A stretch of DNA of 64,000 nucleotides. It comes from Bolinopsis microptera (lineage: Eukaryota; Ctenophora; Tentaculata; Lobata; Bolinopsidae). The translations under genes were made by a program, and so were the position numbers. This document shows positions 2,585 through 30,089 of the stretch, in pieces (the first letter of the stretch is position 1; each line of letters starts with the position of its first letter). The notes below the pieces were generated by a model. The model was not told where the DNA came from and searched no databases. It worked only from the letters and a program-made list of their open reading frames with translations. The stretch lies in the NCBI RefSeq assembly GCF_026151205.1, contig NC_087084.1:14617760-14681759 (forward strand), read 5' to 3'.

Positions 2585-2585
2585 A

Positions 2586-3262
2586 TAGTCAGTGTAATAA
2601 GCGCCAAGCGCGAGCACAGAACTTTATTTCTCCGATTTCGATAAATTTGGTACCAAAAGTTGTCTAAAAATGTGAATAAAATAAATCCACCGTGTAGCAA
2701 TTTTCGCTAAAAATGCTACACGGCGCTTGTTCGCCGCACGTGCTTTTTTTGCGCAAATTTTTAGTTTTTTGGCCTATAACTTTCACATTTTCAATTATTA
2801 CCACATAGTTATTATGGTATCGTAATCAGCTCATCGAGACGAAACTTTTAGTACTAATATTCTAAGATTTAAAGGAATTTTTTTTCAAAAGTTTTTAATC
2901 TGAACACAAGGGTCCCCCCCCCCTTGTGTAAAATTTGAACAAATTTTCGAAAAATTTGGTGCTTTAAATATTATAATTTTGGTACCAAAAATTGCGTTTG
3001 ATTAAGTTCATTACGATCCTGTAAGAATTATTTCAAAATATTCAATATTTTAGGAGTTATAGGCATTTTAAGCAATAAATTAACCATTTTTCGTCCTTTG
3101 TACACTTTTGCAATGCAGAGGAGGCCCACATACATCTCGACGTTATCGTGCTACACGGTGAATTTTAATTATTCACAGTTAAAGGCAACTTTTGGTACCA
3201 AATTTATCAAAATCAGAGACAAAAAATTCTGTGGCAACTCATGGCGCTTATTACATAGACTA
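2586..3262. mobile_element. 677-bp MITE-like element with ~110-bp terminal inverted repeats
   Basis: The two ends are inverted copies of each other. The left starts TAGTCAGTGTAATAAGCGCC, and the reverse complement of the right starts TAGTCTATGTAATAAGCGCC. The match continues inward past GATAAATTTGGTACCAAAAG to CACCGTGTAGCA, about 110 bp. A TA dinucleotide flanks both ends (2584-2585 and 3263-3264), as for Tc1/mariner-like insertions. No coding capacity is visible. A second, diverged copy with the same ends is at 40419-41387, which shows that this is a family rather than a chance palindrome. Assignment to a superfamily is inference from the TA flanks alone. Confidence 0.7.
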
Positions 3263-3263
3263 T

Positions 3264-3555
3264 AACCCTCTAATCTGATCCCAACCCTAACCCTAACCCA
3301 ATTCGTAACAAAAGCATATGCTGAAACTCTAACCCTAGGCCTAACGAGAAATTAGACTAACTTCCTTATACGGTCATATCACGTGATCGAGACAGTTTTT
3401 CGCCAATATCTCGTCAGGGGAGCATTTTAACCCTATTATGTCATGGGGGTGATTCGGAATCAGCGTCCGCAAATACATCGATAGCAGTTGATTTCAACTG
3501 TCGGGGGCCCTTTTACAACAATCTCGAAAATCGACTGTATAGCATGATTTAGCAC
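3264..3555 (-). repeat. dispersed repeat with interstitial TTAGGG units, copy 1
   Basis: On the minus strand this reads through a GATTTCGAGAT-type start, GGGCCCCCGA, ATCGATGTATTTGCGGACGC, a run matching TGATTCCGAATCACCCCCAT, a CACGTGAT box, then TTGGGTTAGGGTTAGGGTTG. The same order of landmarks is present at 53583-53850 and, more diverged, at 15196-15425. It abuts the right end of the MITE at 2586-3262. The TTAGGG units are few and embedded in unique sequence, so this is a repeat family and not a chromosome end. Confidence 0.65.
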
Positions 3556-3626
3556 GCTCGTGCTTTTGGTCCCATGGAAAAATATTGTTCCTAGCCGAAA
3601 TTATCGCCGGTCAAAGGTCAGCGCTT

Positions 3627-6068
3627 ATCACAGTGCTGGCAAGCACGACCGTTGCATTTATTGTGGGTATACTATGTTCCCCATTTACTATTATACCCCC
3701 TTTACGGCGGCCGCCGCCTCCGGCAGGAGTTTTCCAGGCATTAAGACTCATCGGAAGTCGTTAAGCAGAATTATTTTTAGTTCAAAACATTCTAATTTGA
3801 TGTCAAAGATGACAGGAATAAAAAATAGTTATGTTGAGATTTTTAAGAAATTTGCATAAAATACTCGCCAGCACTGTTATACGAAAAAACCCAAAATCGC
3901 CATATTCAGGTGCCTTAAAAACCATGTTAAAATTGAGTTAGAGATCTGAAATTTTTCAGGGCGTCTAGACGTTGATCAAATCGACTGCAAAAAAAGTTTC
4001 AGGTTTCAGGAGTATCGGGAAATGGGTTTTCTAGAACCCCTGTTTTACGACAGATTGTCGTGATATATATATACATACATTTTACCAAAACCCATAATCA
4101 TGGGTAGAGTGGACCGCTGCCAGTGTCTCTCTTTCCCAAACAAAAGGAAATGATATTAATTTGATTGACCGTTCTCAAATGCAAAATGATACCGAGAATG
4201 AAATCGGTCGCTCGCTTTTCCCATTCATTCACGGCTTACGAATTGTATAAATAAGTTTCGATTGATTACATCAATCAGATGCTGTAAAAATATCTTTGGG
4301 TTGCGTTCGGGTAGATACCTAGTATTTCGGGGTAAGGGACAAGGGTGGTAGTTATTACTTATTGAACAAGCTGAAGTTTATTGAATCTTCATTGCCGAGT
4401 ACAGCTGCCTTTGGGTAGTTCTTCTTAATCTATTACAATTGTAAATGAATGGGAAAAGCGAGCGACCGATTTCATTCTCGGTATCATTTTGCATTTGAGA
4501 ACGGTCAATCAAATTAATATCATTTCCTTTTGTTTGGGAAAGAGAGACACTGGCAGCGGTCCACTCTACCCATGATTATGGGTTTTGGTAAAATATCATC
4601 TCTTTTTGATTATAATGTCAGGGTACTTTATAAAGTCGAAATATAAACTGATATCTTCATTAATATAAGGAGGAAGTTTCAACGATTTCGAAATTTTTCC
4701 TTTAAAAACATTTCCTTGTGTTTAGGGAAGCATATCGGTCGATCACTGACTGAATATGCCACTTAATACTCATTCAAGTTGGCATTAAATTCATATATAA
4801 TGACATTAAACTGTCGTGGCAAAGCAGAATTTGTTGGAAATCACGAATGAACAAAATTCTCACCTTTCGCACGTGCAAACTTTGAGCGGACGTTGCGTGC
4901 GCATCCAATATTGAATCACCGTAAATTTTTGCATGTAATTGTTTTATATATAGCTTGATAAGCATGCAACGTTTCAAAGTATTTCAAGAAGAACTGTAAT
5001 CACAACGGCACTCTAAAGTTGACAGAAAATGACGAAAACAGCAATTTTCAGTGATTTTAGCAATTTTCTATCAATTTGGGCGTGTCCCCACTTGTGCAAC
5101 TTTTCGATTTTTAACTTTAAAACTAGCCTAATGCACAATTTATACCTATAGGAAGCAGAACTGAGCTCCACAACCCAAGGCATGGCCCAACACCAGAGAA
5201 TACTAAATCGCAAAATTGACGTTTTTATAAAATAATTCTTCAAAAAAGCACAAACTTCAATGACGAATATCTTTATGAAGGAGCAAGCTAGAAAAACTTT
5301 CCGGTAGATTTTCAGAATGCTTGAACAATTATCTAAGGTGAAAATTTCCTCAGATTTTGAATAAAATTACTCCTTAATGGTTTAAAATTAATTTTAAAAG
5401 TTATTACTTTGTCAAAAATCAAGTTTTTAAAATGGTTAACTTGATGACGTCATCAAGGGGTGTTTATGACGTCAAATAATTTTTTTATACAATGTAAACG
5501 AAAGTGTAAACAATTATTTGCAAGACCTGTGGTCGGAAATGGCTGTATCTTTTATACTTTTGAATCTATGGACACTTAAATACAGGCTACAATTGACTGG
5601 CAAAGCGTCTATCCCTGAATATATATGTATATCTGTATGTATATCTTTATATGTCCCGACAATCTGTCGTAAAACAGGGGTTCTAGAAAACCCGTTTCCC
5701 GATGCTCCTGAAACCTGAAATTTTTTTTGCAGTCGATTTGGTCAACATCTAGACGCCCTGAAAAATTTCACATCTCTAACTCAATTTTAACGTGGTTTTT
5801 AAGGCACCTGAATATGGCGATTTTGGGTTTTTTACCGAATTTCGTATAACAGTGCTGGCGAGTATTTTATGCAAATTTCTTAAAAATCTCAACATAACTA
5901 TATTTTATTCCTGTCATCTTTGACATCAAATTAGAATGTTTTGAACTAAAACACTACCAAAGGGGGTATAATAGTTAAGGGGGTATAATAGTAAAGGGGG
6001 TAAATAGTAAATGGGGAACATAGTATACCCACAATAAATGCAACGGTCGTGCTTGCCAGCACTGTGAT
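3627..6068. mobile_element. inner element with ~430-bp inverted ends beginning TCACAGTGCTGGC
   Basis: The left end (TCACAGTGCTGGCAAGCACG from 3628) and the right end (reverse complement, to 6067) match inwards for some 430 bp. The match passes the landmarks CATTTATTGTGGGTATACTA, AACATAACTA, CTAGAACCCCTGTTTTACG and the palindrome CGACA...TGTCG. A TA lies outside each end. The left end carries about 75 bp of extra GC-rich sequence near 3699-3775 that the right end lacks; the right end has short GGGGGTATAATAGT repeats there instead. Between the ends lies one complete copy of the 1.5-kb arm B1. Confidence 0.6.
4079..5616 (+). repeat. left 1.5-kb inverted arm (B1)
   Basis: This arm pairs with 6070-7612 on the other strand at high identity. 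Landmarks in both include the CATCAAGGGGTGTTTATGACGTC segment (two TGACGTCA-type sites) and CCGAACGCAACCCAAAG. Its outer tip is itself a hairpin: 4079-4236 is the inverse of 4445-4594 (TTTTACCAAAACCCAT, CCGCTGCCAGTGTCTCTC, CCCATTCATT). The arm therefore looks like a small element with 150-bp terminal repeats carried at the end of a larger one. Confidence 0.7.
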
Positions 6069-6069
6069 A

Positions 6070-7612
6070 TTCAGGGATAGACGCTTTGCCAGTCAATTGT
6101 AGCCTGTATTTAATTGTCCATAGATTCAAAAGTATAAAAGATAAAGCCATTTCCGACCACAGGTCTTGCAAATAATTGTTTACACTTTAGTTTACATTGT
6201 ATAAAAAAATTATTTGACGTCATAAACACCCCTTGATGACGTCATCAAGTTAACCGTTTTTAAAACTTGATTTTTGACAAAGTAATAACTTTTAAAATTA
6301 ATTTTAAACCATTAAGGAGTAATTTTATTCAAAATCTGAGGAAATTTTTACATTAGATAATTGTTCAAGCATTCTGAAAATCTACCGGAAAGTTTTTCTA
6401 GCTTGCTCCTTCATAAAGATATTCGTCATTGAAGTTTGTGCTTTTTTGAAGAATTATTTTATAAAAACGTCAATTTTGCGATTTAGTATTCTCTGGTGTT
6501 GGGCCATGCCTTGGGTTGTGGAGCTCAGTTCTGCTTCCTATAGGTATAAATTGTGCATTAGGCTAGTTTTAAAGTTAAAAATCGAAAAGTTGCATACGTG
6601 GGGACACGCCCAAATTGATAGAAAATTGCTAAAATCACTGAAAATTGCTGTTTTCGTCATTTTCTGTCAACTTTAGAGTGCCGTTGTGATTACAGTTCTT
6701 CTTGAAATACTTTGAAACTTTGCATGCTTATCAAGCTATATATAAAACAATTACATGCAGAAAGTTACGGCGATTCAATATTGGATGCGCACGCAACGTC
6801 CGCTCAAAGTTTGCACGTGCGAAAGGTGAGAATTTTGCTCATTCGTGATTTCCAACAAATTCTGCTTTGCCACGACAGTTTAATGTCATTTTAAATGAAT
6901 TTAATGCCAACTTGAATGAGTATTAAGTGGCATATTCAGTCAGTGATCGACCGATAAGCTTACCTAAACACAAGGAAATGTTTTTAAAGGAAAATTTCGA
7001 AATCTTTGAAACTTCCTCCTTATTAATTAATGAAGATATCAGTTTATATTTCGACTTTATAAAGTACCCTGACATTATAATCAAAAAGAGATGATATTTT
7101 ACCAAAACCCATATTCATGGGTAGAGTGGACCGCTGCCAGTGTCTCTCTTTCCCAAACAAAAGGAAATGATATTAATTTGATTGACCATTCTCAAATGCA
7201 AAATGATACCGAGAATGAAATCGGTCGCTGATCGCTTTTCCCATTCATTTACAATTGTAATAGATTAAGAAGATCTACCCAAAGGCAGCTGTACTCGGCA
7301 ATAAAGATTCAATAAACTTCAGCTAATTCAATAAGCAATAACTACTACCCTTACCCCGAAATACTAGGTATCGATCCGAACGCAACCCAAAGAGATTTTT
7401 ACAGCATCTGACTGATGTAATCAATCGAAATTTATTACAATTCGTAAGCCGTGAATGAATGGAAAAAGCGAGCGACCGATTTCATTCTCGGTATCATTTT
7501 GCATTTGAGAACGGTCAATCAAATTAATATCATTTCCTTTTGTTTGGGAAAGAGAGACACTGCACACTGGCAGCGGTCCACTCTACCCATGAATATTGGT
7601 TTTGGTAAAATT
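6070..7612 (-). repeat. right 1.5-kb inverted arm (B2)
   Basis: Inverse of 4079-5616 with scattered substitutions and small indels; for example an extra CTGAT near 7230 and CACTGCACACTGG near 7560. Its tip hairpin is 7097-7252 against 7452-7612. The presence of substitutions means the duplication is not brand new, and also argues against a simple assembly inversion. Confidence 0.7.
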
Positions 7613-13615: not shown

Positions 13616-13928
13616 CGTGCGTCATTTTTTCGGGAAAAGTGCGTGAAGTGTGTTCATTTTTTTTTTCGTGCTTTAAAGTGCGTTCTCCGTTGGCACATTT
13701 ATACAATTAAAACAACAGATCATAAAATATTAGCAAGAAATTAAGTACAAAGGTTGCAATGTTACATCTTACTCTTAGCATAGGAGCATAATTCAAATAT
13801 GCAAAGTGTATACACATATTACTTGACAAATTAATCGCCGATAACAGATATAATCGCGATAATTTTGAAAAAATTATCGATTATCGCGATAAAAATGTTG
13901 TACCGATAATGGCAACCCTAGTTTTATA

Positions 13929-14053
13929 AGTACCCTTGCGTTTATTATATCGCCGCGCGGGCGTTTACTATATCGCCGCGCGGTCGCGGGCTGTCACAGC
14001 TCGCTAATATAGCGGGAGCCCGCTATACCATCGGGCTTGACATACGTACTTGC
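13929..14053. other. GC-rich motif cluster (TATATCGCCGCGCGG)
   Basis: Short stretch with two direct copies of TATATCGCCGCGCGG (about 13947 and 13970) and an inverted TATAGCGGGAGCCCGCTATA hairpin. Similar ATTTATATAGCGG motifs recur at 20700-20940 inside the provirus. Confidence 0.4.
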
Positions 14054-15675
14054 ATGCCACTTTTAGCGCGCGAAACATGTATCAATGCTGGAATTGATGA
14101 AATTTCAAATGAGCAGTTAAAGTACGGTTCTCCTGGACTTCTGCCTTGGTTAAAGGATTTTTTGAAACTGTGTGGACAGTGGAAAAGTGAGGATATTCCT
14201 AATGATTGGAGAAAAGGAATAATCACCATCATCCCAAAGAAAGGGGACCTCACATATTGTAACAATAACAGAGGTATAACTTTACGCTCAACTATATCAA
14301 AGTTATTCCAAATTGTGTTGTTAAAAAGACTGAGTAATGGGCTTGAAAAATTACTCAGAGAGAATCAGTGTGGTTTCAGGAGAAACTGTTCTTGTATAGA
14401 TAAGCTGTACTCACTTCATTGTATAATACACAATTGTATAGAATTCAACGTCCCTTTGTACATAAACTTTATTGATTTTAAAGCTGCTTTTGATTCAATC
14501 AATCGTGACTTTATTAATTATTTGGAAAGCTTTTGAACATTATGGTCTTCCGACAAAATATATTAATGTTTTCAAAGCGTTCTTTAGAGCAACTGAAAGT
14601 GAAACTAATAAATCAATGAAACTAATAAATCAATGTTTTAGCTCATTTTACAAAGTCAAATATTTAAAACAATTAAAATTGTATAGTGCTCAATTTGTAA
14701 ATGACTAGTTGATCTTTGCTATTGGAAGTTTGTCAAGGACTGGCAGCTAGCGGGGCAAGGAATGCACGGGCTTAGGGGCTTTTGTGCACACCAGAACACT
14801 AGCTCGGTAGATTTTTGGAAACTAGAAGGACTGAAAACTAAAATTGTTTTTGATGGAGGCTGAGGCATGTTTTTGAGAGGGACGGTATAATAGCTTGTGG
14901 TAACTACTGGCCTTTACTTTAATAGGATGAAGTTTTAGTTTTAGGACAGGAAGAAGGCATTAAGAAGATTTGCTCTTTGTTTACAAGGCAGAATATAAGC
15001 AATGTTGGTTATAATATGTAGAAAGTGCAGTTCGTGTCAATGGAGAATTGACAAGATGGTTTGATGTCGATTCGGGGACTGGACAAGGTGATGTGCAAGG
15101 GCCCCCCTTTTTAATCTTGTACTTAACTGGGGATTGCAGAGAAGTTTAAGAATATGAATTCTTGTGAAAAGGCCCTTTGGGTATGAAATTGATCCAAATC
15201 GATATATTTTTGGACGCTGATTACGAATCACCCCCCATGACGTAGGGTAAAAATGCTTCCCTGGAGAGTTATGGGCAAAAAACCGTTTTGGTCACGTGAC
15301 AGGCTAGTAAAACATGAATTCGATTGTTTAGGGCTCGGGTTAGGGTTAGGGTTGTGGTAAGGGTTATGGATAGCTTCGGGGTTATGGTTAGGGTTAGGGT
15401 TGGGATTAGTGTTTATGTAAAACCGTTTTGTACGGCTGTAAAACCATAAAAACCAAAGTCACGTGAAATTTTGGGCGAGCGAATTAGTAAAAGCCCTTCA
15501 GTACAGACAAAGTTCCGGACAACCGGAAAAATGTGTCATTGATCTTGACTATGCTGATGACATCGCAGGAATGGATGACACTGTTGAAGGACTGCAAGAA
15601 ACTACGGACAATATTGCGAAATACTGTGGACTTGGGGGTTTAAACTTGATGGAGGTTGTAGGTATTAGGTTATAA
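14054..15675 (+). pseudogene. non-LTR retrotransposon reverse transcriptase, broken
   Basis: The first 160 codons (14054-14536) are clear LINE reverse transcriptase, with the order WRKGIITIIPKKGDLTYCNN, RGITLRSTISKLFQ, ENQCGFRRNCSCIDKLYSLH and YINFIDFKAAFDSINRDF. The last contains the first catalytic aspartate motif. The frame then shifts and decays. The polymerase YADD motif reappears at about 15547-15560 (IDLDYADDIAGMDDTVEGLQET), after a 230-bp insertion of the TTAGGG-bearing repeat (15196-15425). The domain set fits an APE-type LINE (RTE/CR1/L2-like; clade not resolved). The endonuclease and the C terminus are absent. Confidence 0.85.
15196..15425 (+). repeat. dispersed repeat with interstitial TTAGGG units, copy 2
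   Basis: Carries TTTTTGGACGCTGATTACGA, ATCACCCCCCATGACG, a GGTCACGTGAC box and two clusters of GGGTTAGGGTTAGGGTTG. It interrupts the LINE reverse transcriptase at 14054-15675. It is the most diverged of the three copies. Confidence 0.65.
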
Positions 15676-15721
15676 TATTCATTTGTAATGCTTAGATGGG
15701 GTAGACTAAATTTGTCGTTCT

Positions 15722-16920
15722 TGTAGGAACCTCCCGTGGGAGTAACTACTAACTAGTCACTAGGTCTACGCAATTTATAGGGCTCCATCCTATAAGAACC
15801 AGTATAGGATCTAACTACGCCTGGTATATAGTACTGACTACAAGTCTTAATAACTTGCGGTCTAACTACTAGTAGCTAGAGCGCTCTAATGATGACTAGC
15901 TTGAGGGTCTTCGGGATCGATAGTCTCCACCAGTATGGTGTTACTCTAATTCGCCAAGAACTTGTATCCTCCTGAAACTGTACGAGTTAAGCTTGTGATT
16001 AAATACGACTTTCTGTGTCAAGGACTCAAATTTACTTGTGGCAATGCACACTTTTAGTAATTGTAACGACTCAACTTTCAATCATAGTCTCAGAGACTTG
16101 CAGTATAGCAGTTTTAGCAGTTGTAGTATAAGCGATTAATGACAGTATATGAAAAGACCAGCAGAACATCTGGTCATCACGGTAAGTAGTATCAAGTATC
16201 ATAGTATAGTACAATAAAATATAGTATCGACCGAGCTAACCGACCTTAGGATGAGTGGGAGGGGTGGACAGTTGAAGAGCTGGTTCTCTAATCTGCATAT
16301 CGCCACCGCAGCTTAAAGAGTCGACTTTCCTCAACAAGTCCGGAGATGAGTCTGATCGCTGGCCGGAGATGAGTCTGATCATCTTCAGTCGCACGGAGGC
16401 AGAATCAGGGCGTCATCTTAGGGATAAGGGCAGGAACAGAGTAGAAGTGAAGGGATCCAGAGGGTCAGTGTCGGAACGATCGGAGGCCGAGTGGCCAACT
16501 CGAAGTTGGAATAATGGAACTGAGTAGAAGTGGGGAGAAGTCCAGGTCGTCATCTCGAATAGTCTCCCAGGTTCTGTTAATTTACCGTTTAAACTCAGAG
16601 GTCCGCTAATTAATTGGTCGTATCAGCTCGGTTTGTCTCGTCCTGTCCCGGTGCACTGAAATATGAGATTTCGCCGTCAGGACACCGGTTCGGGGGCTCC
16701 GTGATTGGTTGCTATTCGTACGGTTGCTACGGTGATTGGCGCGCTCCACAGTTTGATGGGAGCCTCATCACTGCAACTCTTAATGAGTTTTCATTCGCTC
16801 CTAGGCAGGTGTCCCGTCCGGTCCATCACGGTATGAACTAGGTATGAAGTGTAAGTGTCAACTCCCAGTGCTCAGTTATTAACTGAGCGACAAAAAGAAT
16901 AGGGGGCCGAGGTTCTTACA
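15722..16920 (-). repeat. 3' long terminal repeat of the env provirus
   Basis: 1199 bp, TG...CA ends with short inverted tips (TGTAGGAAC / TGTAAGAAC). It carries internal tandem words (GGAGATGAGTCTGATC twice, near 16342 and 16364). An identical 75-codon open frame on the plus strand at 16614-16841 and 24919-25146 exists only because the LTR is duplicated. In element orientation a TATAAAT lies close to the end of the LTR (about 15773-15779). Confidence 0.9.
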
Positions 16921-16934
16921 CGTCCCTTTCTTCC
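16921..16934 (-). promoter_or_regulatory. polypurine tract adjoining the 3' LTR
   Basis: On the minus strand GGAAGAAAGGGACG ends exactly where the LTR starts (TGTAAGAAC). A purine run in this place primes plus-strand DNA synthesis in LTR elements and fixes the orientation. Confidence 0.75.
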
Positions 16935-17690
16935 AAACTGGCGTCCCGCCATGAGTCTATCTGCGTTTTTGGAATCGGGGAGTTGACATGGAGAATGGAG
17001 GTTGACATCAAGGGTTGCTTGGGAGAGAGATCCACGATGGTTAGGAGTTGTTGGCCCGGTTAACCTTGGTCGATACATTAATACACTTCTAAAAACGTGG
17101 TTTCGCCGCAATAATTTAAGTTAACCCGGTTGTAAATAGTTAAAATAAAACTTGTTTTTTTTTTACAACAAACATTTCGCCAATTATCTTTTACTTTAGT
17201 TCGTAAATAGTTTTCGGCATTAGGCCAATGGTTATTGATGAATGGAGCTGTGCGGTGTTAAGTGTATGACTTTGAATGACTAACAATATCGCCAACATTT
17301 GTTAGAAAAGAAAAGTTACAACTGCAAGTACTAAGGCACGGTTTGTGAAAAGCTTCTTCTTCCTCATTTATTCAAGCCGAGGGTTGCGACTGGGTGATCG
17401 CAGGTAGAGGGTTCCCATGATTGGGAGACCATAACCTGCTTTCTTCGGTCGGACCAGCACTCGCCCACTCGGCAGAACCGAGATTTTAGTGAGTTTGTGA
17501 GTGAGTGTGACCTAAGGTTCGACGGTAAAGGAGAGAGGCAGAGAAGGAAAAAGAGGGAATTGGTTTTATCATGGAACGCCTATGACCAGGTCGTATCCAG
17601 ACATCTACTCAGAGGTTTGGAAGTACCACTATTCTAGAGAAAACTACCTCCTATTTATAAAAGTCACACTACTATACTCACGCGCCGCCA
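16935..17690 (-). other. non-coding 3' region of the provirus between env and the 3' LTR
   Basis: About 750 bp with no open frame of note on the element strand. It is long for a retroviral 3' untranslated region and contains T-rich sequence and inverted words near 17390-17500 (GGGAGACC, CCGAGATTTTAG). It may be remnant sequence or regulatory. Nothing is recognised. Confidence 0.4.
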
Positions 17691-19814
17691 TTACTGGAAA
17701 GTTCGTTTTTCGTCCTGTAAGCCAGGGTAGACTGGATGATATCCGCCCGGGTACATGTATTGTGATGCGTAAGGTCCGGGTAGTGTGCCATCTTGCTGTT
17801 CTGCTTGTCCGATGGGTGCTGTCGGTTTAGGGGCTTCCCCTGCATTTACCACTAATGATATGTGGCTCTCTGATCTCGGTAAGGTACTGCATCGTTCTTC
17901 GCCATATCTTTCTAAGCCGGGGTCTCGGAAGTGCACTCTGGTTGAGTTTCGCCTGCACTTGCAACACGGTGGGGGACACATATTAGTGTTAGGAGCGACA
18001 AAGTCTTTGATCATTTTCAATACCACAAATACCAGCAGTGTGACCCCTACGATGCATGCCATTTTAAAGTACTTGGGGATCATTTTTATATTTTGTATGG
18101 TGTCTTTAATTATTGGTTGTGCACTCTGCATGGTGGCAATCCCCTTTTGTCCTTCTTTCAGCTTCTGTAAGTCCTCCTGGAAGTTTTGCACGTCTCTCGC
18201 CAAGCTCTCTGCTCCCAGCCCCGGAATTTTGATCATATCCTCTCGATCTATCATTGGCGCCAGTAGAGGTGGTTTTCGGTACATGATACTGTTGGGCGCC
18301 GCATTCTCGGGACTGTGTATCACTATGTTACCGAAGCTAACACTCGTGGTATTTCGATCCCATTTCACAAATGTCACTTGATGCTCCGGCATTATTCTTT
18401 CCGCCACTGATGATGTGGTTTGCATGTGTGGGTGGGAAGTACCTTGTTCCGAGGATTTGTGGGACACTATCTTTATCGCCGTCGAGTTGGTTCGTAGTCC
18501 AGCTGGTGTTGAGATGTACGCGTCAGTGTTACATGCCACCAAGGGGCAGCTAGAGGTCTTGGTTCGCCGGGAGTTGAGACAGTCGTCAAACTGTACAAGT
18601 TCGTATTGAGTTTCTTGGCAGATCATTGCCCTCGCGAAGACAGGACACTGCTTTGGGGTTCTTAAAACATACCATTTGCCGTCCTGGAATGTTGCATAAG
18701 GTGGTGACTTAAAAGCGAGGCAGTGGGTGCTGTTGTCATAGGTAGTTCGAGCGACGAATCCAGTTTGTCGTATAGCAAAGAACGCCGAGAGTTGTGCTGT
18801 GTCCATGTCAGGAAACAGGAGTACAAATCTAAATTGTAGATTTTCAAAATCTGCCTCGATCAATGTCGCTGTAGCCGTTTGATACAGAAGATGGGGAAAT
18901 TCTGCGAAGAATTTTGAGGTCTTGGCCAGTTGCCCAGTTGCTAGGTGTCTCACTTCGTCTACACTGAGAAGGGAAGGAGTCAGTCGTCCCGACAGTTGAC
19001 CGTTCAGCACAAACTGGAGCAGATCTTTCAGTTGGTCGATCGATTCTTTCGCTAATGCATATGCATACGCTCCCACTTGGCAGTTTAGCACCCTGCTGAG
19101 ACCAAAGAATTGTTTCTGCAATGCTCGTGTGTATCCAAACAGCTTTGTTGTTGCTTCTGCCAACTTCTGATTGAAGTCATCCTCGTGTTTTATTCTCGCC
19201 GCTAGGGAAGCCTTTATTTTGCCGATTGAGTTTTCTTGTTCAGTTAACATCTGTTGGATCTTTTTAATTGTTCTTTCGTTTTGAACACTAAGGTCCAGTG
19301 CCGTTGCAGCTGTCGCTATTGCAGCGACCCCCACGAGGAATCGCCGTCTCCTGTGTGGAAGTTTATGGCACCTAGCGTCGGTGATGTTAAAGGTTTCGCA
19401 GAGCCTTGCCGATTTGAGCTGGTATTCCGACAAATAGATAGCTTCATATGCCGCCGATAAAGCATTTATTTCTAGTTGGTAATTCGCCTCCGCCATTTCG
19501 GTTCTTTGTCTAGTGTGTAGTCCGCAATGTAGCCCTTCAGTTAGTGCCGAAATATTGGCCTTCTGGAGTTGTATGACTATGCTGGACACTTGATATCCAG
19601 CATGGGTGATGAGAGTGCCTGTCCTTTCCATTAACACTCCTCGTGATGGTAAACTCACGAATCCTGTTCCGTCTCGCCCAATATCTAAAGGTAGAACTTC
19701 TGGTTCGGGAGGATCGCCTAGAGATTCGCCGTCTACTGTTCCGAAGATTGCCAAGTTCCATATGGTTGTCAGGGTGGTGATCCAGAGCAGTATCCTCCAT
19801 AGTTCGGTTGACAT
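17691..19814 (-). CDS. env: retroviral-type envelope glycoprotein, class I fusion architecture (707 aa)
   Basis: Intact frame with the order expected of a class I fusion glycoprotein. A hydrophobic signal lies at residues 5-25. A surface part ends at a furin-type RRRR (155-158). Next comes an Ala/Gly-rich fusion peptide (about 159-175) and a long heptad-repeat helix (about 176-240). A cysteine-bearing core follows (Cys at 245, 365, 390, 399, 412, 423, 428), then a second shorter helix (about 535-565). One membrane span (about 584-601) and a 106-residue tail with a CPPPCCKC cluster complete the protein. N-glycosylation sequons are near 87, 143, 361, 443 and 488. It would act at the membrane, promoting virus-cell or cell-cell fusion. 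It sits just before the 3' LTR, the canonical env position. I cannot assign it to a named env family; errantivirus/baculovirus F-like and other retroviral types share this plan. A spliced mRNA is likely, since a donor lies near the 5' LTR. Confidence 0.85.
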   Translation of the reverse strand: MSTELWRILLWITTLTTIWNLAIFGTVDGESLGDPPEPEVLPLDIGRDGTGFVSLPSRGVLMERTGTLITHAGYQVSSIVIQLQKANISALTEGLHCGLHTRQRTEMAEANYQLEINALSAAYEAIYLSEYQLKSARLCETFNITDARCHKLPHRRRRFLVGVAAIATAATALDLSVQNERTIKKIQQMLTEQENSIGKIKASLAARIKHEDDFNQKLAEATTKLFGYTRALQKQFFGLSRVLNCQVGAYAYALAKESIDQLKDLLQFVLNGQLSGRLTPSLLSVDEVRHLATGQLAKTSKFFAEFPHLLYQTATATLIEADFENLQFRFVLLFPDMDTAQLSAFFAIRQTGFVARTTYDNSTHCLAFKSPPYATFQDGKWYVLRTPKQCPVFARAMICQETQYELVQFDDCLNSRRTKTSSCPLVACNTDAYISTPAGLRTNSTAIKIVSHKSSEQGTSHPHMQTTSSVAERIMPEHQVTFVKWDRNTTSVSFGNIVIHSPENAAPNSIMYRKPPLLAPMIDREDMIKIPGLGAESLARDVQNFQEDLQKLKEGQKGIATMQSAQPIIKDTIQNIKMIPKYFKMACIVGVTLLVFVVLKMIKDFVAPNTNMCPPPCCKCRRNSTRVHFRDPGLERYGEERCSTLPRSESHISLVVNAGEAPKPTAPIGQAEQQDGTLPGPYASQYMYPGGYHPVYPGLQDEKRTFQ

Positions 19815-22800
19815 TTTGCTTTTAAAAGTTGAGGTTAGTGGGCGTTTATCACTTATGTGTTATGGTTCAACACTACTGGGGTGCTCTGAGACTGTAATAT
19901 CGTTACCAAATTGAGTTTATCACTCCAATAGTGCGGAACCACATGCAAATAACACATATTTACAGATAACATAGAAATTTCAAGCACAATTTAGGTTTGT
20001 GAAATCATATTAGTCTGGTAATTAAACACGCAAATATGTGATTAACGGTATTCAATTCATCAATTCCAATTCCACTACATCTCATTCAATCAAAAATTTT
20101 CAAAATGTTCCCTAAAAATGTCGTCGTTCTGGAAAGAAACACTTAAAAGTTACACTTCTTGAAATTTCGTCAATGATATTCTTATCTGGAAAATTTCGAA
20201 AAAAATCGCCTTAACTTAAAATCACACGTGTGTTTTACAAATTCATTCTACGCTAACCATTTTCGCCTTCTAATACGTGCTGTAAAACAACAATTCACAT
20301 TATATCGTACAGGTGGTCTGCTCGCCAATCTAGTTGACTTGCGCACTGTAAGCTCAGGTTGCTCTACTTAGTTGTGTCCGCCTGAGGAGCTTCAACTGCT
20401 GCTTGTGGTTAATTTACTACTTCTAAGTCAGTGGGGGCTGCAGTACCAGAATCTGTGTTTTTTTTTTTTCTATAAGTTTGTAATTTACACTAAATGATGG
20501 TTTATCATTATGAATGTAATGACGGCTTGTCTCCGATCACCTTTGCTTACCTTACTACTCACCTAGACCTTACTTTTTTTCTTTTTTTTTTTTTTTAAAT
20601 GTTTTATATAACGGCCCAGTGCCCATATTGGTTATACTCATATAATATTTCATTAAACTAGGCGCAAACTACCGCTTATTTATCATTATAAATATCATCC
20701 CGCTTCAATATCAACTTGGCTATTTCTATACCGCCGCAGGCTATTTATATCGCGCCGCAAAACGTGCTTTAATTATCATCGATCTTCTCACTTTTGGAGG
20801 AATAAAATAACCGGTCAACCTTTATATACATAAACACATCTCCATTTTTTTATACCGGTGAGCATCATCATTTATATAGCGCTTTATCGGAATATCATTT
20901 ATATAGCGGTTCATGCACGTGCAATTTATATAGCGGCGAACTTCAACTTTAAAATGTAGGCGGTTAATCATCAGTTCTATTCTAAGAGCTCTATTCATAA
21001 AAGTGAGGTTGCTTTACTACAGTTGCCTAATGAAACCTTTTACCTGGTGAGATGAATGGTGAATGGGTGAATTGATAAGTGAATGAATTTGATGTACCTG
21101 ATGATTACCTCCTGTAGCTTAAGCTGGCCACTGTAGTGCGCCCTCACTTATCCTTACCTTACGTTAATATAAGTATTTATAGTATATAGGCCGGTACCGT
21201 TGTCGGCCAGGATCGCCGTATTAGCCACGCTGAGGGCTTTGTTAAGTAGTATATAACTTAATTGGTAGTGATTTCATGGTTTATCTTATCAACTTATAGT
21301 TATACCTTTGGTGACCGGGACAGTGCGTGTGACTTTGAGTAAACACATCTTCTGTAACTCCTCGTGGTGCACAAAACCATTCCAACCTATGTATGTCCCC
21401 CTTACGGGTTCCACAAGCCCGACGGTACATAGTTAGACGAAAGACAGAGAAGCCTTGATTGCCAGATCAAGGACTGCATCAGTAGCAGCGAAATACGGAT
21501 ATACCTTCTCCCTTACAGTCAGCGAGCTGACAACTATCTGACTGTGTCTTTTAGGCCTTGCCACACCACTTTCGCTATTGCATTCGCTCGCCCTTATTTA
21601 CTGACACATTCGTACACAAGGTCTCTCTTATTGAGTCTATACTCACGATCGCCATTACTTACCAGTTCAACTTGTGCTACACAGGTACTGTTGACATGTG
21701 AATCTTGGGTGCCCTATTTAGTTCAGTGACCTGGTTATGTGTCACGTACGTTTCCGTACGTGACTACATTATATAAAATGTTTGAGGTCTTTAAGATTAT
21801 ATTTTTACTTAAATGCACCAGCCTGCGAATGTTCATTGAGATATTGAATGCAGCCTGACCCGGGTGACGTTAGTAAAGTTGTGTTTAAATGATCCGGCCC
21901 GGAGACAAACTTGTTATATTATTATGACTCGGTTCTCGGACTGCGATATATATTAAAATTTCTCATTGCTGTCCATGGTGAGACATGAGAAATAAATGGT
22001 AATCTACCCGTCAATATTTGTGCAAATGCCTTATAGTTAATAATAATATGGCTGGTACGTTAACTCCGTTCATATTGTGCACGTTACATTGGTCTTTAAT
22101 GCAAGTTTTATAAAAATCAAAAACTATCAGAGTTTCATTGATTGAAACTTTTAGTAACTCAACCGTCGCTTTTAACAAAATGGCCTTATGAATTTGGTTA
22201 AGGGGGGTATATGTTAGTCGACGAATTTTGTTAAATTTTCAATAGTCCTCGTTTACTAGTGTACTGTAATGTTATACAAATTGTACTGTGGAAAATGGAA
22301 TTGACGTGTTACCCAAAAGTGCTCCAAGAAATCTGTTTGGATCAATGAGGGGGGTTCGTAGAATATGACTTGTAAAAATATATAGTCCGCGTTTTAAGCT
22401 GTAGGTAGTAGTCTCGCCAAGTGAGAGCTACTGTGTAAACTACGCAAACTAAGGCCATGCAGAATTAATGACTACATGGTCATCAAGTAGGTGCTCGCCT
22501 TCATCTTTGTCAAGGAATTAAAGAAAATTAAAGGAATATTTTAACCTGTTTAAAAAATACAGAAATTTAAGGCCATGCAGACTTACCACTGCATGGTCGT
22601 CAAAATCTTTCGGCCAGTTCTGCATACAGCCGCCTTTTTCATTAAACTAACGGCGATCTATATAATTTAGTAGTGTTCTTGGTGTTTTATGGTAAAATGT
22701 AAGGATGTCCGCAGTTGTTTAACCACGGACACATCACGCCTATTTAAGTCTAGTTGCAAATAATGGCCGTAAAGTATTCGGATAAATAATGTAAAAATTC

Positions 22801-23780
22801 CGCGTTAATCAGTAGGCTGGCATTGGACACAGTGCTTTGTCTCTTTGATTGAGACGGGGTAGACGTGGTGGATATTGATTAATGAGCAAGAATATTGACG
22901 CAATAGTGAGAGTAAGTGGTCATGTGGTGGGGTGAATTGACAAGGTTGGCTTTAAGTTTGTCCATTTAGTAACCGTAATTTGTTTGAAAAACAACTTCCG
23001 AATTTGGTGCCGTTAATTTGAATAAGAGTAATATTCGATCTCAGAATTTGTTTTAGCTGTACGGTTGCCTGAAGTAAATGCTGGCATTTCGGAGCGTTAC
23101 AAAAGGTTTGCCTCTGGCCTCTCTTTTGAATAAACCAAAATGTGCCGTCCCAGCAGCAACCACACAGCCCGGCACTCGGTTACTATAAGTGGACCCACTC
23201 TACGCCTTATTTTACAATTATTAACAGCAAATATTGTCGCCGAAAAACTGAAATAACTGGAAAATACAGTTGCAATGACTGTTGCCGTCAATTGTGCTAA
23301 TTCGATTTCGCCATAAATGGGCGTGCACCCGTTTATCAAGCCATAAACTTAACAGTAGTCATAAACGATCGACTTTACCTGTCTAAATAATTTAAGGAAC
23401 AGTCGATTACCAATATTGTGACGATGACTTGTGATATGGGTGATACAATAATATTGTAAATTTCCGTACTGACTAACTGACGAGGTAACGAACAACTGCA
23501 CAGGTCACACAGTGATTATGCAGTGCTCACTGCTCTTTCTTACCAGTTACTGGTCTAGTAACGCCTTATCTGGCCCGTTATATTCTCTCACAGTTCGCCA
23601 CTACACACACGGTAATTATACAGTGCTCTTTCTACCAGTTACTGGTCTAGTAACGCCTTATCTGGCCCGTTATATTCCATTATGTTCTATCACATTTCGC
23701 CAAAAATTTTCTGCCGAAAGTAGCGCATTTAGCTTACAATTCGTTACTAGTGCAAACTGAGCGCTTTTATGGAACGACAA
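19815..23780 (-). other. provirus interior lacking gag and pol
   Basis: About 4 kb where gag, protease, reverse transcriptase, RNase H and integrase would be expected. No frame exceeds about 80 codons, and I see no catalytic motif of any of these enzymes. Features seen: T-rich runs (20457-20470, 20573-20597), repeated ATTTATATAGCGG motifs (20700-20940), two diverged copies of GGCCATGCAGA...ATGGTC (22453 and 22572), and a tandem duplication of about 100 bp near 23540-23690. The last contains TACTGGTCTAGTAACGCCTT twice. The stretch may be a long packaging/leader region, captured host DNA, or the scar of a large deletion plus replacement. Confidence 0.6.
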
Positions 23781-23788
23781 CTCTTACC
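23781..23788 (-). promoter_or_regulatory. candidate major splice donor of the provirus
   Basis: On the minus strand ACCAAG|GTAAGAG lies 239 nt inside the 5' LTR edge, where retroviruses keep the donor used for the env message. The stretch from the LTR to here is open in one frame (ending RHCRPPR then stop) but has no ATG, so it is more likely leader than gene. A plausible acceptor (TTTTAAAAG) lies just before the env ATG. Confidence 0.45.
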
Positions 23789-24005
23789 TTGGTGGCCTGC
23801 AATGCCTCTTCTTGGGAGTTGTCCTCTTCTTATCCACTTTGTCGCCGTAATGTGGGGTAGAGATCTTTTGAGTTTGTCTTGTCTTGCTTCTGAGGTATTC
23901 TCTCTGTCCTTCTCGGAGTTCGTCAGAGAGATAGCCGTCTGTAGGATTCGTCTTCCTTGATTGTCTTAACTCGTTACTGTTTGGGAAAGTTCTTTTAGAA
24001 TCAGA

Positions 24006-24023
24006 GTCTCGTTTCAGTCTCCA
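24006..24023 (-). promoter_or_regulatory. candidate primer-binding site of the provirus
   Basis: TGGAGACTGAAACGAGAC starts 3 nt after the 5' LTR on the element strand and begins with the obligatory TGG that pairs with a tRNA CCA end. I could not match the remaining bases to a specific tRNA. Confidence 0.5.
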
Positions 24024-24026
24024 ATT

Positions 24027-25225
24027 TGTAGGAACCTCCCGTGGGAGTAACTACTAACTAGTCACTAGGTCTACGCAATTTATAGGGCTCCATCCTATAA
24101 GAACCAGTATAGGATCTAACTACGCCTGGTATATAGTACTGACTACAAGTCTTAATAACTTGCGGTCTAACTACTAGTAGCTAGAGCGCTCTAATGATGA
24201 CTAGCTTGAGGGTCTTCGGGATCGATAGTCTCCACCAGTATGGTGTTACTCTAATTCGCCAAGAACTTGTATCCTCCTGAAACTGTACGAGTTAAGCTTG
24301 TGATTAAATACGACTTTCTGTGTCAAGGACTCAAATTTACTTGTGGCAATGCACACTTTTAGTAATTGTAACGACTCAACTTTCAATCATAGTCTCAGAG
24401 ACTTGCAGTATAGCAGTTTTAGCAGTTGTAGTATAAGCGATTAATGACAGTATATGAAAAGACCAGCAGAACATCTGGTCATCACGGTAAGTAGTATCAA
24501 GTATCATAGTATAGTACAATAAAATATAGTATCGACCGAGCTAACCGACCTTAGGATGAGTGGGAGGGGTGGACAGTTGAAGAGCTGGTTCTCTAATCTG
24601 CATATCGCCACCGCAGCTTAAAGAGTCGACTTTCCTCAACAAGTCCGGAGATGAGTCTGATCGCTGGCCGGAGATGAGTCTGATCATCTTCAGTCGCACG
24701 GAGGCAGAATCAGGGCGTCATCTTAGGGATAAGGGCAGGAACAGAGTAGAAGTGAAGGGATCCAGAGGGTCAGTGTCGGAACGATCGGAGGCCGAGTGGC
24801 CAACTCGAAGTTGGAATAATGGAACTGAGTAGAAGTGGGGAGAAGTCCAGGTCGTCATCTCGAATAGTCTCCCAGGTTCTGTTAATTTACCGTTTAAACT
24901 CAGAGGTCCGCTAATTAATTGGTCGTATCAGCTCGGTTTGTCTCGTCCTGTCCCGGTGCACTGAAATATGAGATTTCGCCGTCAGGACACCGGTTCGGGG
25001 GCTCCGTGATTGGTTGCTATTCGTACGGTTGCTACGGTGATTGGCGCGCTCCACAGTTTGATGGGAGCCTCATCACTGCAACTCTTAATGAGTTTTCATT
25101 CGCTCCTAGGCAGGTGTCCCGTCCGGTCCATCACGGTATGAACTAGGTATGAAGTGTAAGTGTCAACTCCCAGTGCTCAGTTATTAACTGAGCGACAAAA
25201 AGAATAGGGGGCCGAGGTTCTTACA
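24027..25225 (-). repeat. 5' long terminal repeat of the env provirus
   Basis: 1199 bp, matching the 3' LTR at 15722-16920 base for base in every stretch I compared (constant offset of 8305, no indels). It is followed by target duplication GTTCT at 25226-25230. As the 5' LTR on the minus strand it would hold the promoter. Confidence 0.9.
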
Positions 25226-25296
25226 GTTCTTAAGGAAAATGGACCTTTTCGAGATCCATTTTCCAAAACAGGTAATTGGTTTTAAAATACACTGAA

Positions 25297-26282
25297 CTAA
25301 CCAGGTTCACTTTCGAAGCAAGATCTGTCGACATATTGCCACTCTGAGTTTGCAAAAGTTGTGTGTTCTCCAATAATGAAACACCCTGTCACCCTCCAAC
25401 CGAGTGGACTGATCACAATACCCTCGCATCTGTAAAATTTGCATAGTGATAATTTAATATAACTAATCCTCCACCACGATTTGACGCTCTGGCGGGAGTC
25501 TGAACATACGGTGGATAGAAACCGTCTAGTTCGAGCTCCTCTCCCTGAAAAGGCAAACATTCCGTGTTACAATTTGTTTCATTGAAGCAGAGAACGTCGT
25601 ATTTTGTGTATTGATCTATATTCTCCCGAAATTCTTCAATGTTCCCATTAAGTGACCTAACGTTTAGCGAGAAAAGTTTTAATTCATACTCCTTCGTATT
25701 TTTTATTGCTTTCGCGGTATAGTATTTGCAGTTATTTAGAAGACTAGACGTTGTTTCCCATGGATTCAAATCAGCATCAGTATCATCACGATCACCTATT
25801 TGATTTGATAGGTGGTCGCGATTAAAGGGGTTAAACCTAATAGTGTTACTGAGATTTATCATGTGAAGCTGTCTAATGGAGACATCATATGCTGGGAAAA
25901 TTTTTCTCAAGCATTCTTTGCAGCCTGTTGAGCCAGCAGAACATCTTGTGTGGGATAGGTTGTCACAGTAGCAACATTCGGTCATTTGTCTTACATTCCC
26001 AATTTTTGTGCAAGTGTGACATTTTTCTCGTTTATTGGAGACTGGGATTTGTATAGGCCGTGATGATAATAGAGGCATGACGGCGCCCACTGGAAGAATT
26101 TCTGAAATGCAGCTGTAGCAAGACCATTCTCCAGTAAGTTCAGTTATGTCGCTAGGTGTTAGGTGAGCACATTTTGGGTGATATGTCATATAACAGATAC
26201 TACAAGTGATACTTATCTTGTGTGAGACTAGGCGCTTTGTACAGGCCTTACAGCTATTTTTACTACTTCGGATAACTACCAT
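25297..26282 (-). pseudogene. 5' part of a non-LTR retrotransposon: PHD-type zinc fingers plus endonuclease start
   Basis: The frame 25413-26282 encodes 289 residues. The N terminus has two cysteine-rich clusters of PHD type: CKACTKRL..ITCSICYMTYHPKCAHL...WSCYSC, then CHTCTKI...ECCYCDNLSHTRC..GCKEC. The C-terminal third matches the start of an APE-like endonuclease (LKLFSLNVRSLNGNIEEFRE, YDVLCFNETNCN, GGGLVI). PHD fingers fused or adjacent to an endonuclease occur in some CR1-like LINEs. The match continues in another frame to about 25297 and then ends, with no reverse transcriptase. The 3' part has therefore been lost or displaced, which is unusual because LINEs normally lose their 5' end. 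Confidence 0.8.
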
Positions 26283-27138
26283 TTTTTGGCTGTAAATGAT
26301 ACTCTTGTTTAAATGTAGATATAGGTTTGCTACTGTATATTAATATATAATAAAGTACACGGAAAAACAGTTACTGAAAGTATCTACTCCAGATGAGTGA
26401 GCCAAGAAAATGGGGCCAGGGAAGAGTGAGAAAACGTGCGAGGTTTTGTGAACACTCTGTCCGGGTCCCTAACTTCAGCTCCTAACTAGAGAAATCAATT
26501 CAGTTAAGTGTTATTCTGTGGGAATAAGTTTAAAAAGTTAATTGAAGTATGTGAAATGAATGTGAAATGAATACAAATATTGTTACAAATATTGTTCGAA
26601 ATTATCCTTGAAACGTGCAAGGTAGATATTCAAAAAGATAAATAGTAACAGACATATCAGAGATACTGAGCAGGTACGTATTTTTCTCGTTACCTTGTTC
26701 AGTTTTAATTGATATCTAAGTTAATAAATTAATAGTTTAAAAGTAGGACCCAAATTAACCGTACACCCCGATTTTTGATTATTTCCCCTTTTCTCCATTG
26801 TTTCAAAAACTTCATTATGCCATCCTGTTAAACTCAACAACATATTGCCGTGTGCATAGGTTTGGATTGAGCTCTAGTAAATAATAAGATTCAGTTCAAG
26901 CCATCTAAAGCGACTCATGAACATGAACAAAAGAACTTAGAATTTTATGAAGTATGGTTATATACAAATATATATATAGAGATATAGTAATATATAGCCG
27001 ATGTTGATAATGGTGCGATGAGACGCACTGTTCTTGCAACGTGACATGTATAAATATAATGAATATTATTATTACACCTGTATTATACCTGAACAACTAG
27101 GTTCTTTTAAGTAAGTGAATTCACGAAGATACCTTTCA
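26283..27138. other. gene-free stretch
   Basis: Contains probable 5' UTR of the LINE on its left side, two short direct repeats (GTGAAATGAATGTGAAATGA near 26550), and an AT-rich tract at 26950-27000. No gene recognised. Confidence 0.4.
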
Positions 27139-27939: not shown

Positions 27940-30089
27940 ATGAGGAGGACTGAGGAGGAGGATGAGGACTGAGGAGGATGGCTGAGGAGGATGACTGAGA
28001 GGGAGGAGGAGGATAAAACTGAGGAGGACTGAGAAGAAGGAGGATGATGACTGAGGATGACTGAGGAGTAGGACTGAAGAGGGGGACTGAGGAGGAGGAG
28101 GGGAGTCGGAGGAGGACTGAGGAGGATGACTGATGAGGAATGATGAGGAGGGGAAGGAGGTGGATGAGGAGGATGAGGAGGATGAGGAGGACTAAGGAGA
28201 AGGAGGAGGAGAAGGAGGACTGGTAAAGAGGATTAATGAGGAGGAGGAGGAGGACTGAAGAGGAGGATCAGGAGAACTGAGAAGTAGTTCGGACTGAGGA
28301 GTAGGAGTAGGAGGATGACTGAGGAGGGGAGGAGGAAGAGGACTGATGAGGACTGAGAAGGAGAAGGACTGAGGAGAACTGAGGAGGAGGACTGACTAGG
28401 AGGAGGAGGGGGACTGGGGGAGGACTGAGGAGGACTGAGGAGGAGGACTAAGGAAAACGATGAGGAGGAGGACTGAGAAGGAGGAGGAGGAGGAGGACTA
28501 AGGAGGACTGAAAAGGAGGAGGATGAAAAGGAGGAGGACTGAGGAGGAGGAGGGGAGGAGGAGGACTGAGGAGGATGGCTGAGGAGATTGACTGAGGAGG
28601 AGGACTGACAGGAAGGAGGAGGAGGAGGAAGACTGAGGAGGAGGAGGAGGTAAAGGACTGAAGAGAAGAAGGAGGAGGAGGAGGAGGACCCATGAGGAGG
28701 ACCCAGGAGGAGGACTGAGGAGGAGGAAGAGGAGGAGGAGGAGGAGGACTAAGGAGAACACTGAGGAGGAGGATTGAGGACTGAAGAGGAGGAGGATGAA
28801 AAGGAGGAGGACTGAGTAGGAGGGGGAGGAGGAGGAGGGGAGGAGGAAGACTGAGGAGGACTGAGGAGGATGGCTGAGGAGGTTGGCTGAGGAGGAGGAC
28901 AGACAGGGAGGAGGAAGACTGAGGTGGAGGAGGAGGTAAAGGACTGAAGAGGAGAAGGAGAAGGAGGACTGGTGAAGAAGATTGATGAGGAGGAGGGGGA
29001 ATGAGGAGGAGGAGGACTGAGGAGTAAAAGTTGGAGGATGACTGAGGAGGGGAGGAGGAAGAGGACTGAGGAGGACCCAGGAGGAGGAGGATGACTGAGG
29101 AGGAGGACTGATGAGGACTGAGAAGGAGGAGGACTGAGGAGAACTGAGGAGGAGGACTGACTAGGAGGAGGAGGGGGACTGGGGGAGGACTGAGGAGGAC
29201 TGAGGAGGAGGACTAAGGAAAACGATGAGGAGGAGGACTGAGAAGGACTGAAGAGGAGGAGGATGAAAAGGAGGAGGACTGAGGAGGAGGAGGGGAGGAG
29301 GAGGACTGAGGAGGATGGCTGAGGAGGTTGACTGAGGAGGAGGACTGACAGGAAGGAGGAGGAGGAGGAAGACTGAGGAGGAGGAGGAGGTAAAGGACTG
29401 AAGAGAAGAAGGAGGAGGAGGAGGAGGACCCATGAGGAGGACCCAGGAGGAGGACTGAGGAGGAGGAAGAGGAGGAGGAGGAGGAGGACTAAGGAGAACA
29501 CTGAGGAGGAGGATTGAGGACTGAAGAGGAGGAGGATGAAAAGGAGGAGGACTGAGTAGGAGGGGGAGGAGGAGGAGGGGAGGAGGAAGACTGAGGAGGA
29601 CTGAGGAGGATGGCTGAGGAGGTTGGCTGAGGAGGAGGACAGACAGGGAGGAGGAAGACTGAGGTGGAGGAGGAGGTAAAGGACTGAAGAGGAGAAGGAG
29701 AAGGAGGACTGGTGAAGAGGATTGATGAGGAGGAGGAGGGGGAATGAGGAGGAGGAGTACTGAGGAGTAAAAGTAGGAGGAGGACTGAGGAGGGGAGGAG
29801 GAAGAAGACTGAGGAGGATCAGGATGACCCACGAGGAGGACCCAGGAGGAGAACCCAGGAGGAGGAGGATGACTGAGGAGGAGGACTGTGAAGGAGGAGG
29901 ACTGAGGAGAACTGAGGAGGAGGACTGACTAGGAGGAGGAGGGGGACTGGGGGAGGACTGAGGAGGAGGACTGAGGAGGACTGCGGAGGAGGACTAAGGA
30001 AAACGATGAGGAGGAGGAGGAGGAGGACTAAAAAGGACTGAAGAGGAGAAGGATGAAAAGGAGGAGGGCTGAGGAGGTTGACTGAGGAG
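27940..30089 (+). repeat. 2.1-kb purine (GAGGAGGACT) satellite with ~740-bp higher-order repeat
   Basis: Nearly pure A/G on the plus strand, built from GAGGAGGACTGAGGAGGA-like words with inserts such as GGAGGATGGCTGAGG and GACCCAGGAGGA. Longer order is present: the same blocks recur 740 bp apart (28751 and 29491; 28924 and 29664), and GACTGACTAGGAGGAGGAGG occurs near 28390, 29156 and 29924. Long Ser/Leu/Pro frames on the minus strand are repeat artefacts. Mirror-rich purine tracts of this length can form triplex DNA. The same satellite occurs in the opposite orientation at 56800-58130. Confidence 0.85.

What the first reader, a model, noticed from the sequence alone, without database searches (positions are those of the whole stretch)
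15722..25225. Young provirus that kept env but has no visible gag or pol
Sequence shows two 1199-bp LTRs without a difference in the parts compared, an exact 5-bp target duplication, PPT and a PBS candidate, and an intact 707-codon class I fusion-type env. The 4 kb upstream of env lack any long frame. Elements that lose genes normally lose env first; one that retains only env and was mobilised recently implies a trans-acting helper. It may also imply a reason to keep env, such as packaging-independent spread, cell fusion or host use.
Basis: partly seen in the sequence, partly recalled or inferred. Interest (0 to 1): 0.9.

Follow-up and report, generated by a model that had tools for sequence, protein, structure and literature searches.

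The report
Comb-jelly satellite provirus with recombined env
A young virus-like element in a comb jelly genome cannot make its own copying enzymes and appears to have picked up its intact envelope gene recently by recombining with a full-length relative, which, unexpectedly, also carries a gene of the Hsp70 chaperone family.

Summary
The anatomy is real: two identical 1199-bp LTRs, a 5-bp target duplication, an intact 707-codon env on the minus strand, and no gag or pol except a broken pol tail of about 75 codons. The host is the ctenophore Bolinopsis microptera. "Kept env" is not supported. Nine sibling copies lack gag-pol; env is broken or truncated in the other eight, and 6 of the 7 of these whose LTR pair was compared have identical LTRs. 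In the window copy, a segment from 20330 to 17909-17755 matches a full-length relative on C5, while its left surroundings match the siblings: 137 of 138 versus 3 of 51 informative sites. Simplest account: env was re-acquired by template switching between co-packaged RNAs, with mobilisation in trans. The relative has Ty3-type pol, env and, upstream of gag, an open 497-codon HSP70-like gene, 31-35% identical to the other listed database hits. Six of 21 HSP70-like loci in the genome lie within 15 kb of gag or env relatives. Open: C5's gag frame is split, genome-wide pol counts were never returned, both env models were too poor to use.

The parts
15717..15721 (.). target-site duplication GTTCT (low side)
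   Evidence: equals 25226-25230
15722..16920 (-). 3' LTR, 1199 bp, TG..CA
   Evidence: identical to 24027-25225
16921..16934 (-). polypurine tract GGAAGAAAGGGA plus CG before the 3' LTR
   Evidence: read directly
17691..19814 (-). intact env, 707 codons: RRRR cleavage-like site at residues 155-158, hydrophobic stretch 159-177, membrane stretch about 584-603
17755..20330 (-). segment of full-length (C5) type; 5' break between 20334 and 20330; 3' break between 17909 and 17755 against C6, unresolved against C2
20128..20128 (-). candidate splice acceptor (first exonic base) for env, inside the C5-type segment and also in C5; several ATGs lie between it and env
   Evidence: motif only
20246..20470 (-). 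remnant of the last ~75 codons of pol, broken
20515..21331 (-). stretch shared with C5 just upstream of its HSP70-like gene (90.8%)
21357..21609 (-). 253-bp fragment of a repeat found at many other places, inside stretches shared with the siblings, not matched in C5
22831..23689 (-). leader segment of C13b type (5' break 23689-23677, 3' break 22859-22831)
23788..23788 (-). splice donor candidate AAG|GTAAG (last exonic base)
24006..24023 (-). primer binding site candidate, 3 bases after the 5' LTR
   Evidence: tRNA not identified
24027..25225 (-). 5' LTR, 1199 bp
25226..25230 (.). target-site duplication GTTCT (high side)

Best explanation
The window holds a recently integrated, non-autonomous satellite of an env-carrying Ty3/Gypsy-type retroelement of the comb jelly Bolinopsis microptera. 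Satellite RNA is made from its own LTR and carries the leader, primer site and polypurine tract. It would be packaged, copied and integrated by gag and pol proteins of a full-length relative such as the one on C5. During one such round, with satellite and full-length RNA in the same particle, reverse transcriptase switched templates and placed pol tail, env splice acceptor candidate and env of the full-length type into a satellite backbone; another switch involved a C13b-type leader. Shown: anatomy, family, LTR identity, mosaic structure, existence of the full-length relative. Inferred: trans-mobilisation, co-packaging, copy-choice as the mechanism, and satellite as recipient. Env is probably a passenger at this locus; whether it is expressed is unknown.
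For: Nine copies with matching LTRs and internal sequence; in their fetched pieces tblastn with the relative's gag, pol and HSP70 pieces found only the pol tail (4.6 kb of C12a not held). Of 8 LTR pairs compared, 7 have 0 substitutions and C8 has 12 of 1195; all 8, and C5, have 5-bp duplications of differing sequence. C5 copy: protease, RT, RNase H, integrase zinc-binding and core domains; LTR pair 0/926 different; window LTR differs from it at 4 of 926 sites, against 9 of 1199 for C6 and 14-41 of 1192-1199 for the other siblings. Mosaic: C5 versus C6 informative sites 3 of 51 C5-like left of 20334/20330 and 137 of 138 right of it, 0 of 1000 permutations as strong; C5 versus C2 4 of 49 and 89 of 89, 0 of 1000; C13b-type patch 147 of 154 against 2 of 24 before it. 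Eight of nine copies have env truncated or stopped.
Against: No mobilisation was observed. C5's gag is split into two pieces in different frames (coordinates, phases), so C5 itself may not be the active helper. The own-genome search with a pol piece was asked 13 times and never answered, so the number of gag-pol copies is unknown. The 3' break of the env segment is clear against C6 (109 of 111, then 1 of 8) but not against C2 (541 of 1000 permutations). C6 is itself 89-100% like the window over most of env. Direction of transfer is inferred from linkage in the siblings. Gene conversion between loci would leave a similar mosaic.
Confidence: 0.82

Rival explanations
1. Env was kept by selection (host use, cell fusion or spread) while gag and pol were lost.
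For: The window env is open for 707 codons and its amino acid sequence equals C5's apart from 3 substitutions in the tail and a 2-residue deletion. C6 also retains most of env.
Against: Eight of nine copies lost env integrity and 6 of the 7 of these with a compared LTR pair have identical LTRs. Env lies in a recently transferred segment, so there was little time for decay or selection.
Confidence: 0.07
2. The mosaic arose by ectopic gene conversion between integrated copies, not by template switching.
For: Same expected patch pattern; C5 and the window copy share 96-100% stretches right of the segment and, a few hundred bases off, left of it.
Against: At least two patches from two different partners in one young copy with an identical LTR pair fit rounds of copying from mixed RNAs more simply.
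Confidence: 0.2
3. The internal region is an assembly chimera of two copies.
For: Family members are highly similar, and no reads could be examined here.
Against: No N inside the element; flanks with an exact target duplication; eight other copies with two LTRs also have exact 5-bp duplications.
Confidence: 0.04

Closest known systems
Env recombination in vertebrate endogenous retroviruses (e.g. murine and feline leukaemia viruses; review PMC10536682, passages seen)
   Same: Defective and full-length members co-packaged, template switching, env moved between them
   Different: Here the host is a ctenophore, the relative's pol is Ty3-type, and the recipient lacks gag and pol
Non-autonomous LTR elements such as ETn/MusD, VL30, LARD (recalled, no call)
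   Same: LTRs, primer site and polypurine tract retained, gag-pol lost, mobilised in trans
   Different: Those known to me do not carry an intact env gained from the helper
Env-carrying gypsy elements / errantiviruses (Chary and Hayashi 2025, seen only as a citation in passages of PMC13172572)
   Same: Ty3-type pol followed by env in the C5 relative
   Different: Env reached no Pfam cutoff; HSP70-like gene upstream of gag. Whether that paper includes this element I could not see
TelKA elements of bdelloid rotifers (PMC5408684, passages seen)
   Same: LTR element with an env that the authors liken to paramyxovirus-type class I fusion proteins; related bdelloid elements took up extra genes
   Different: Extra genes named there are GDSL esterase and DEDDy exonuclease; the term hsp70 does not occur in that text
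Closterovirus HSP70 homologue (recalled, no call)
   Same: A virus encoding an HSP70-class protein
   Different: Plant RNA viruses; not retroelements

Membership tests
Ty3/Gypsy (Metaviridae) | Protease-RT-RNase H-integrase pol, Ty3-like | tested here: met
   Met for the C5 relative only: RT 3e-30, RNase H 1.8e-27, rve 1.7e-11; best solved structure Ty3 RT 5.5e-79 and Ty3 Gag-Pol for integrase 2.4e-23. Not found in the window element. No tree was built.
Ty3/Gypsy (Metaviridae) | TG..CA LTRs, 5-bp target duplication | tested here: met
   8 non-autonomous pairs and C5: 9 of 9
Errantivirus / env-carrying gypsy | env downstream of pol | tested here: met
   C5: pol 5686256-5682138, env 5681701-5679572, same strand
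Errantivirus / env-carrying gypsy | env homologous to baculovirus-type F | tested here: inconclusive
   No Pfam family above its cutoff; Fusion_gly E 0.85; profile best PDB hit metapneumovirus F E 0.014, among chance-level hits to other proteins; models of mean pLDDT 36.5 and 39.5
Retroviridae | Second RNase H domain besides the tether | tested here: not met
   Pfam at E up to 1: RNase H matches only at residues 632-761 of the first pol piece, none in the second piece; a very diverged second domain could be missed
Non-autonomous LTR element | LTRs, primer site and polypurine tract without gag-pol, yet recently mobile | tested here: met
   mobility inferred from LTR identity and target duplications
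Domesticated env (syncytin-like) | env conserved by selection at a fixed locus | tested here: inconclusive
   Identical LTRs and a recently transferred env argue against it; expression and population data not available

The most novel reading that the evidence does not exclude
Ctenophores carry a lineage of Ty3-type endogenous retroviruses that encodes its own HSP70-class ATPase chaperone upstream of gag (for particle assembly, folding of env or movement), together with a swarm of gag-pol-less satellites that trade leader and env modules with it by copy-choice, one of which regained a complete env.
Probability: 0.55. Interest if true: 0.82.

Novelty: new variant of a known kind. Interest (0 to 1): 0.6.

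Why it matters
It points to copying from mixed RNAs in one particle, a retrovirus-like trait, in a ctenophore, a phylum that a paper's title supports as sister to other animals (PMC10232365, listing only). The HSP70-like gene in the full-length relative, if functional, would be a chaperone in a retroelement; none of the rows listed in my searches for that describes one (listings only, 15 of 46, 10 of 36 and 3 of 3 papers shown).

Tried and rejected
Pol by homology in 19815-24026: rejected apart from the broken pol tail. KH-domain reading of the 192-codon frame upstream of the HSP70-like gene: looked so by eye, no Pfam match at E up to 1, dropped. IMG/VR scan with the env alignment: 59 stretches matched a pattern, none confirmed. 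Env fold: two models of mean pLDDT 36.5 and 39.5, too poor for a fold search, none run. The 253-bp repeat as an LTR of its own: it is part of a 635-bp repeat, not pursued. The env base count was misregistered by 6 bases and is void; one search replaces it (the breakpoint lists stand).

Search counts: the test used 34 of 34 HSP70 rows (21, 13), 31 of 31 gag rows and 46 of 65 env rows (19 dropped as further fragments of the same loci). Two of the six co-locations lean on weak rows: C12:13023358 (env E 2.5e-5 and gag E 8.6e-8), and at C11:753398 the env row (E 4.3e-4), though gag there is 67% identical. The 15-kb limit was chosen after I had seen some of the coordinates.

Full report
What is there. 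The window holds a minus-strand LTR element, 15722-25225, with identical 1199-bp LTRs, target duplication GTTCT, a polypurine tract, a primer-site candidate and an intact 707-codon env. Between env and the 5' LTR the longest minus-strand frame (83 codons) is no longer than chance gives, and pieces of the relative's gag, pol and HSP70 match nothing there except a broken pol tail of about 75 codons.

Organism. The window lies at C13:14617760-14681759 of a 264.65-Mb assembly of 232 contigs. A frame on the 23,637,599-base contig C5 is listed by NCBI as LOC134815383 of Bolinopsis microptera, on a contig of that same length, a lobate ctenophore. A paper gives 265 Mb for that species and compares 13 chromosomes; it gives 346 scaffolds, so the assembly version may differ (PMC11797021, passages).

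The family. LTR and internal searches find nine copies of the satellite type: window, C6, C13 at 1.59 Mb (C13a), C13 at 5.25 Mb (C13b), C2, C8, C9, C12 at 4.87 Mb (C12b) and C12 at 3.46 Mb (C12a), besides solo or partial LTRs. In the pieces held, tblastn with the relative's proteins found only pol tails; a 4.6-kb stretch of C12a was not held. LTR pairs were compared for 8 of 9; C12a's 3' LTR is interrupted. Seven pairs have no substitution, C8 has 12 of 1195; all eight have 5-bp duplications. Env: window intact; C6 nearly complete but with a stop and a frame change; C13a from residue 279 on with two stops; the other six keep only two pieces. So spread of the family does not need env in cis.

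The full-length relative. C5:5677871-5697474, 19.6 kb, has LTRs of 926 bp (matching the window LTR without its positions 678-947), identical to each other, and duplication ATCTA. In order on its minus strand: leader, HSP70-like frame (497 codons), gag in two pieces in different frames, pol open from 5686256 to 5682138, env of 709 codons. Gag is assigned by its place before pol and its recurrence in the genome; Pfam gives no match. The pol frame was seen as two abutting pieces in step. RT and integrase are nearest to Ty3 among solved structures. Relative to C5, the window element lacks the block of HSP70, gag and nearly all of pol.

The mosaic. Numbering from the end of the 5' LTR, in 100-base steps: over 1200-3600 the window copy is mostly 93-100% like its siblings; exceptions are 1601-1700 (C6 86, C12a 88), 1801-1900 (84-87), 1201-1300 for C13b (88) and 2701-2800 for C8 (90). 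From 3701 to 6200 it is 98-100% like C5, while siblings drop to 68-84% over 3701-4170 and then end; C6 resumes at 4304 (89-100%), C13a at 5072, the other six in two short pieces or from 5509. The 5' break lies between 3693 and 3697 (window 20334 and 20330). The copy returns to sibling type between 6118 and 6272 against C6; against C2 the return is not resolved. A leader segment, about 350-1168, is of C13b type. Env of the window and of C5 differ by 8 substitutions in 2124 bases and 6 bases absent from the window; the three amino acid changes lie in the tail, at or beyond the 3' break, and the four other substitutions are synonymous. The window LTR is also nearest to C5's, 4 of 926.

Interpretation. 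A satellite backbone received pol tail, splice acceptor candidate and env of the full-length type. Template switching between co-packaged RNAs explains two patches from two partners in one young insertion; gene conversion is a rival. C5 as the very helper is not shown, since its gag is split and the pol count was never obtained.

The HSP70-like gene. Two pieces score 9.6e-41 and 6.1e-36 to PF00012. The 497-codon frame aligns to BiP over residues 10-491, and the ATP-site motifs line up (naming of motifs and the reading that the helical lid is missing are recalled knowledge). Apart from itself, the 119 other hits listed are 31-35% identical, DnaK-type where named and mostly bacterial (only the 8000 candidates sharing most words were scored). 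In this genome 21 clusters of HSP70-like matches were found; 6 lie within 15 kb of a gag or env match of this lineage, against 0.9% expected per cluster (binomial 2e-8; 7e-7 without C5; retroelements may cluster, which the test ignores). At C11:750500-757500, a decayed relative has HSP70 (40.8% over 157 residues) followed by gag (55-64%) in the same order and strand, and a second small HSP70 piece out of order. At C11:924206-926466 the order HSP70 then gag recurs by coordinates, and at C12:11937418-11938520 HSP70 is followed by an env fragment 73% identical to the window's. Fifteen of 21 clusters have no such neighbour; some may be host HSP70 genes (C6:6410258, open for 651 codons), others are high-identity fragments (C12:12688424, 93%). 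Of 13 gag matches of 54-67% identity, 12 have no HSP70 match within 15 kb, so the gene is not universal in the wider group.

Env type. Cleavage-like RRRR, hydrophobic stretch, membrane stretch and a long helix in two low-confidence models suit a class I fusion protein, but Pfam gave nothing above cutoff and the best PDB profile hit is E 0.014. Related env proteins in the public protein set: 7 distinct ids-89% identical, none with a name.

Literature. In the rows shown by searches I saw no paper on an HSP70-bearing LTR element or on env elements of ctenophores; several lists were capped (e.g. 20 of 2,151). I saw passages of PMC9040795 (and its abstract), PMC12440569, PMC10536682, PMC13172572, PMC5408684 and PMC11797021. 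The most relevant paper, Chary and Hayashi 2025, is not held and may cover ctenophores.

Verdict. The element is a satellite with a recently recombined env. The surprising part is the HSP70-like gene of its relative.

Noticed in passing
C5:5688471-5689988 (L070): HSP70-like 497-codon frame inside the full-length relative, upstream of gag
   Followed up: yes
C3:10394194/10396975, C7:175114/177952, C13:14535871/14538733: Three loci with a gag match starting 2.8-2.9 kb before an env match on the same strand, too short for a pol of about 4.1 kb: perhaps another pol-less family keeping gag and env
   Followed up: no
   Followed up: partly
window 58703-59141 and 62004-62442: Identical 439-bp direct repeats flank an open 942-codon minus-strand frame (59210-62035) without Pfam match: possible further mobile element
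   Followed up: no
window 28001-30000 and 57001-58000: Low-complexity blocks with extreme opposite strand skew (GC skew +0.79/+0.74 and -0.68) and Ser/Pro/Leu-rich open frames
   Followed up: no
window 25416-26339: 308-codon minus-strand frame with a PHD-finger match below cutoff (E 1.6e-4) just beyond the 5' LTR
   Followed up: no
window 13922-14533: Reverse transcriptase fragment, RVT_1 E 1.2e-9
   Followed up: no
window 15328-15413: Degenerate TTAGGG-type array near the 3' LTR
   Followed up: no
L067, L068: 635-bp identical repeats about 4.36 kb apart with RT-like frames (by eye); 253 bp of them match the satellite family
   Followed up: partly
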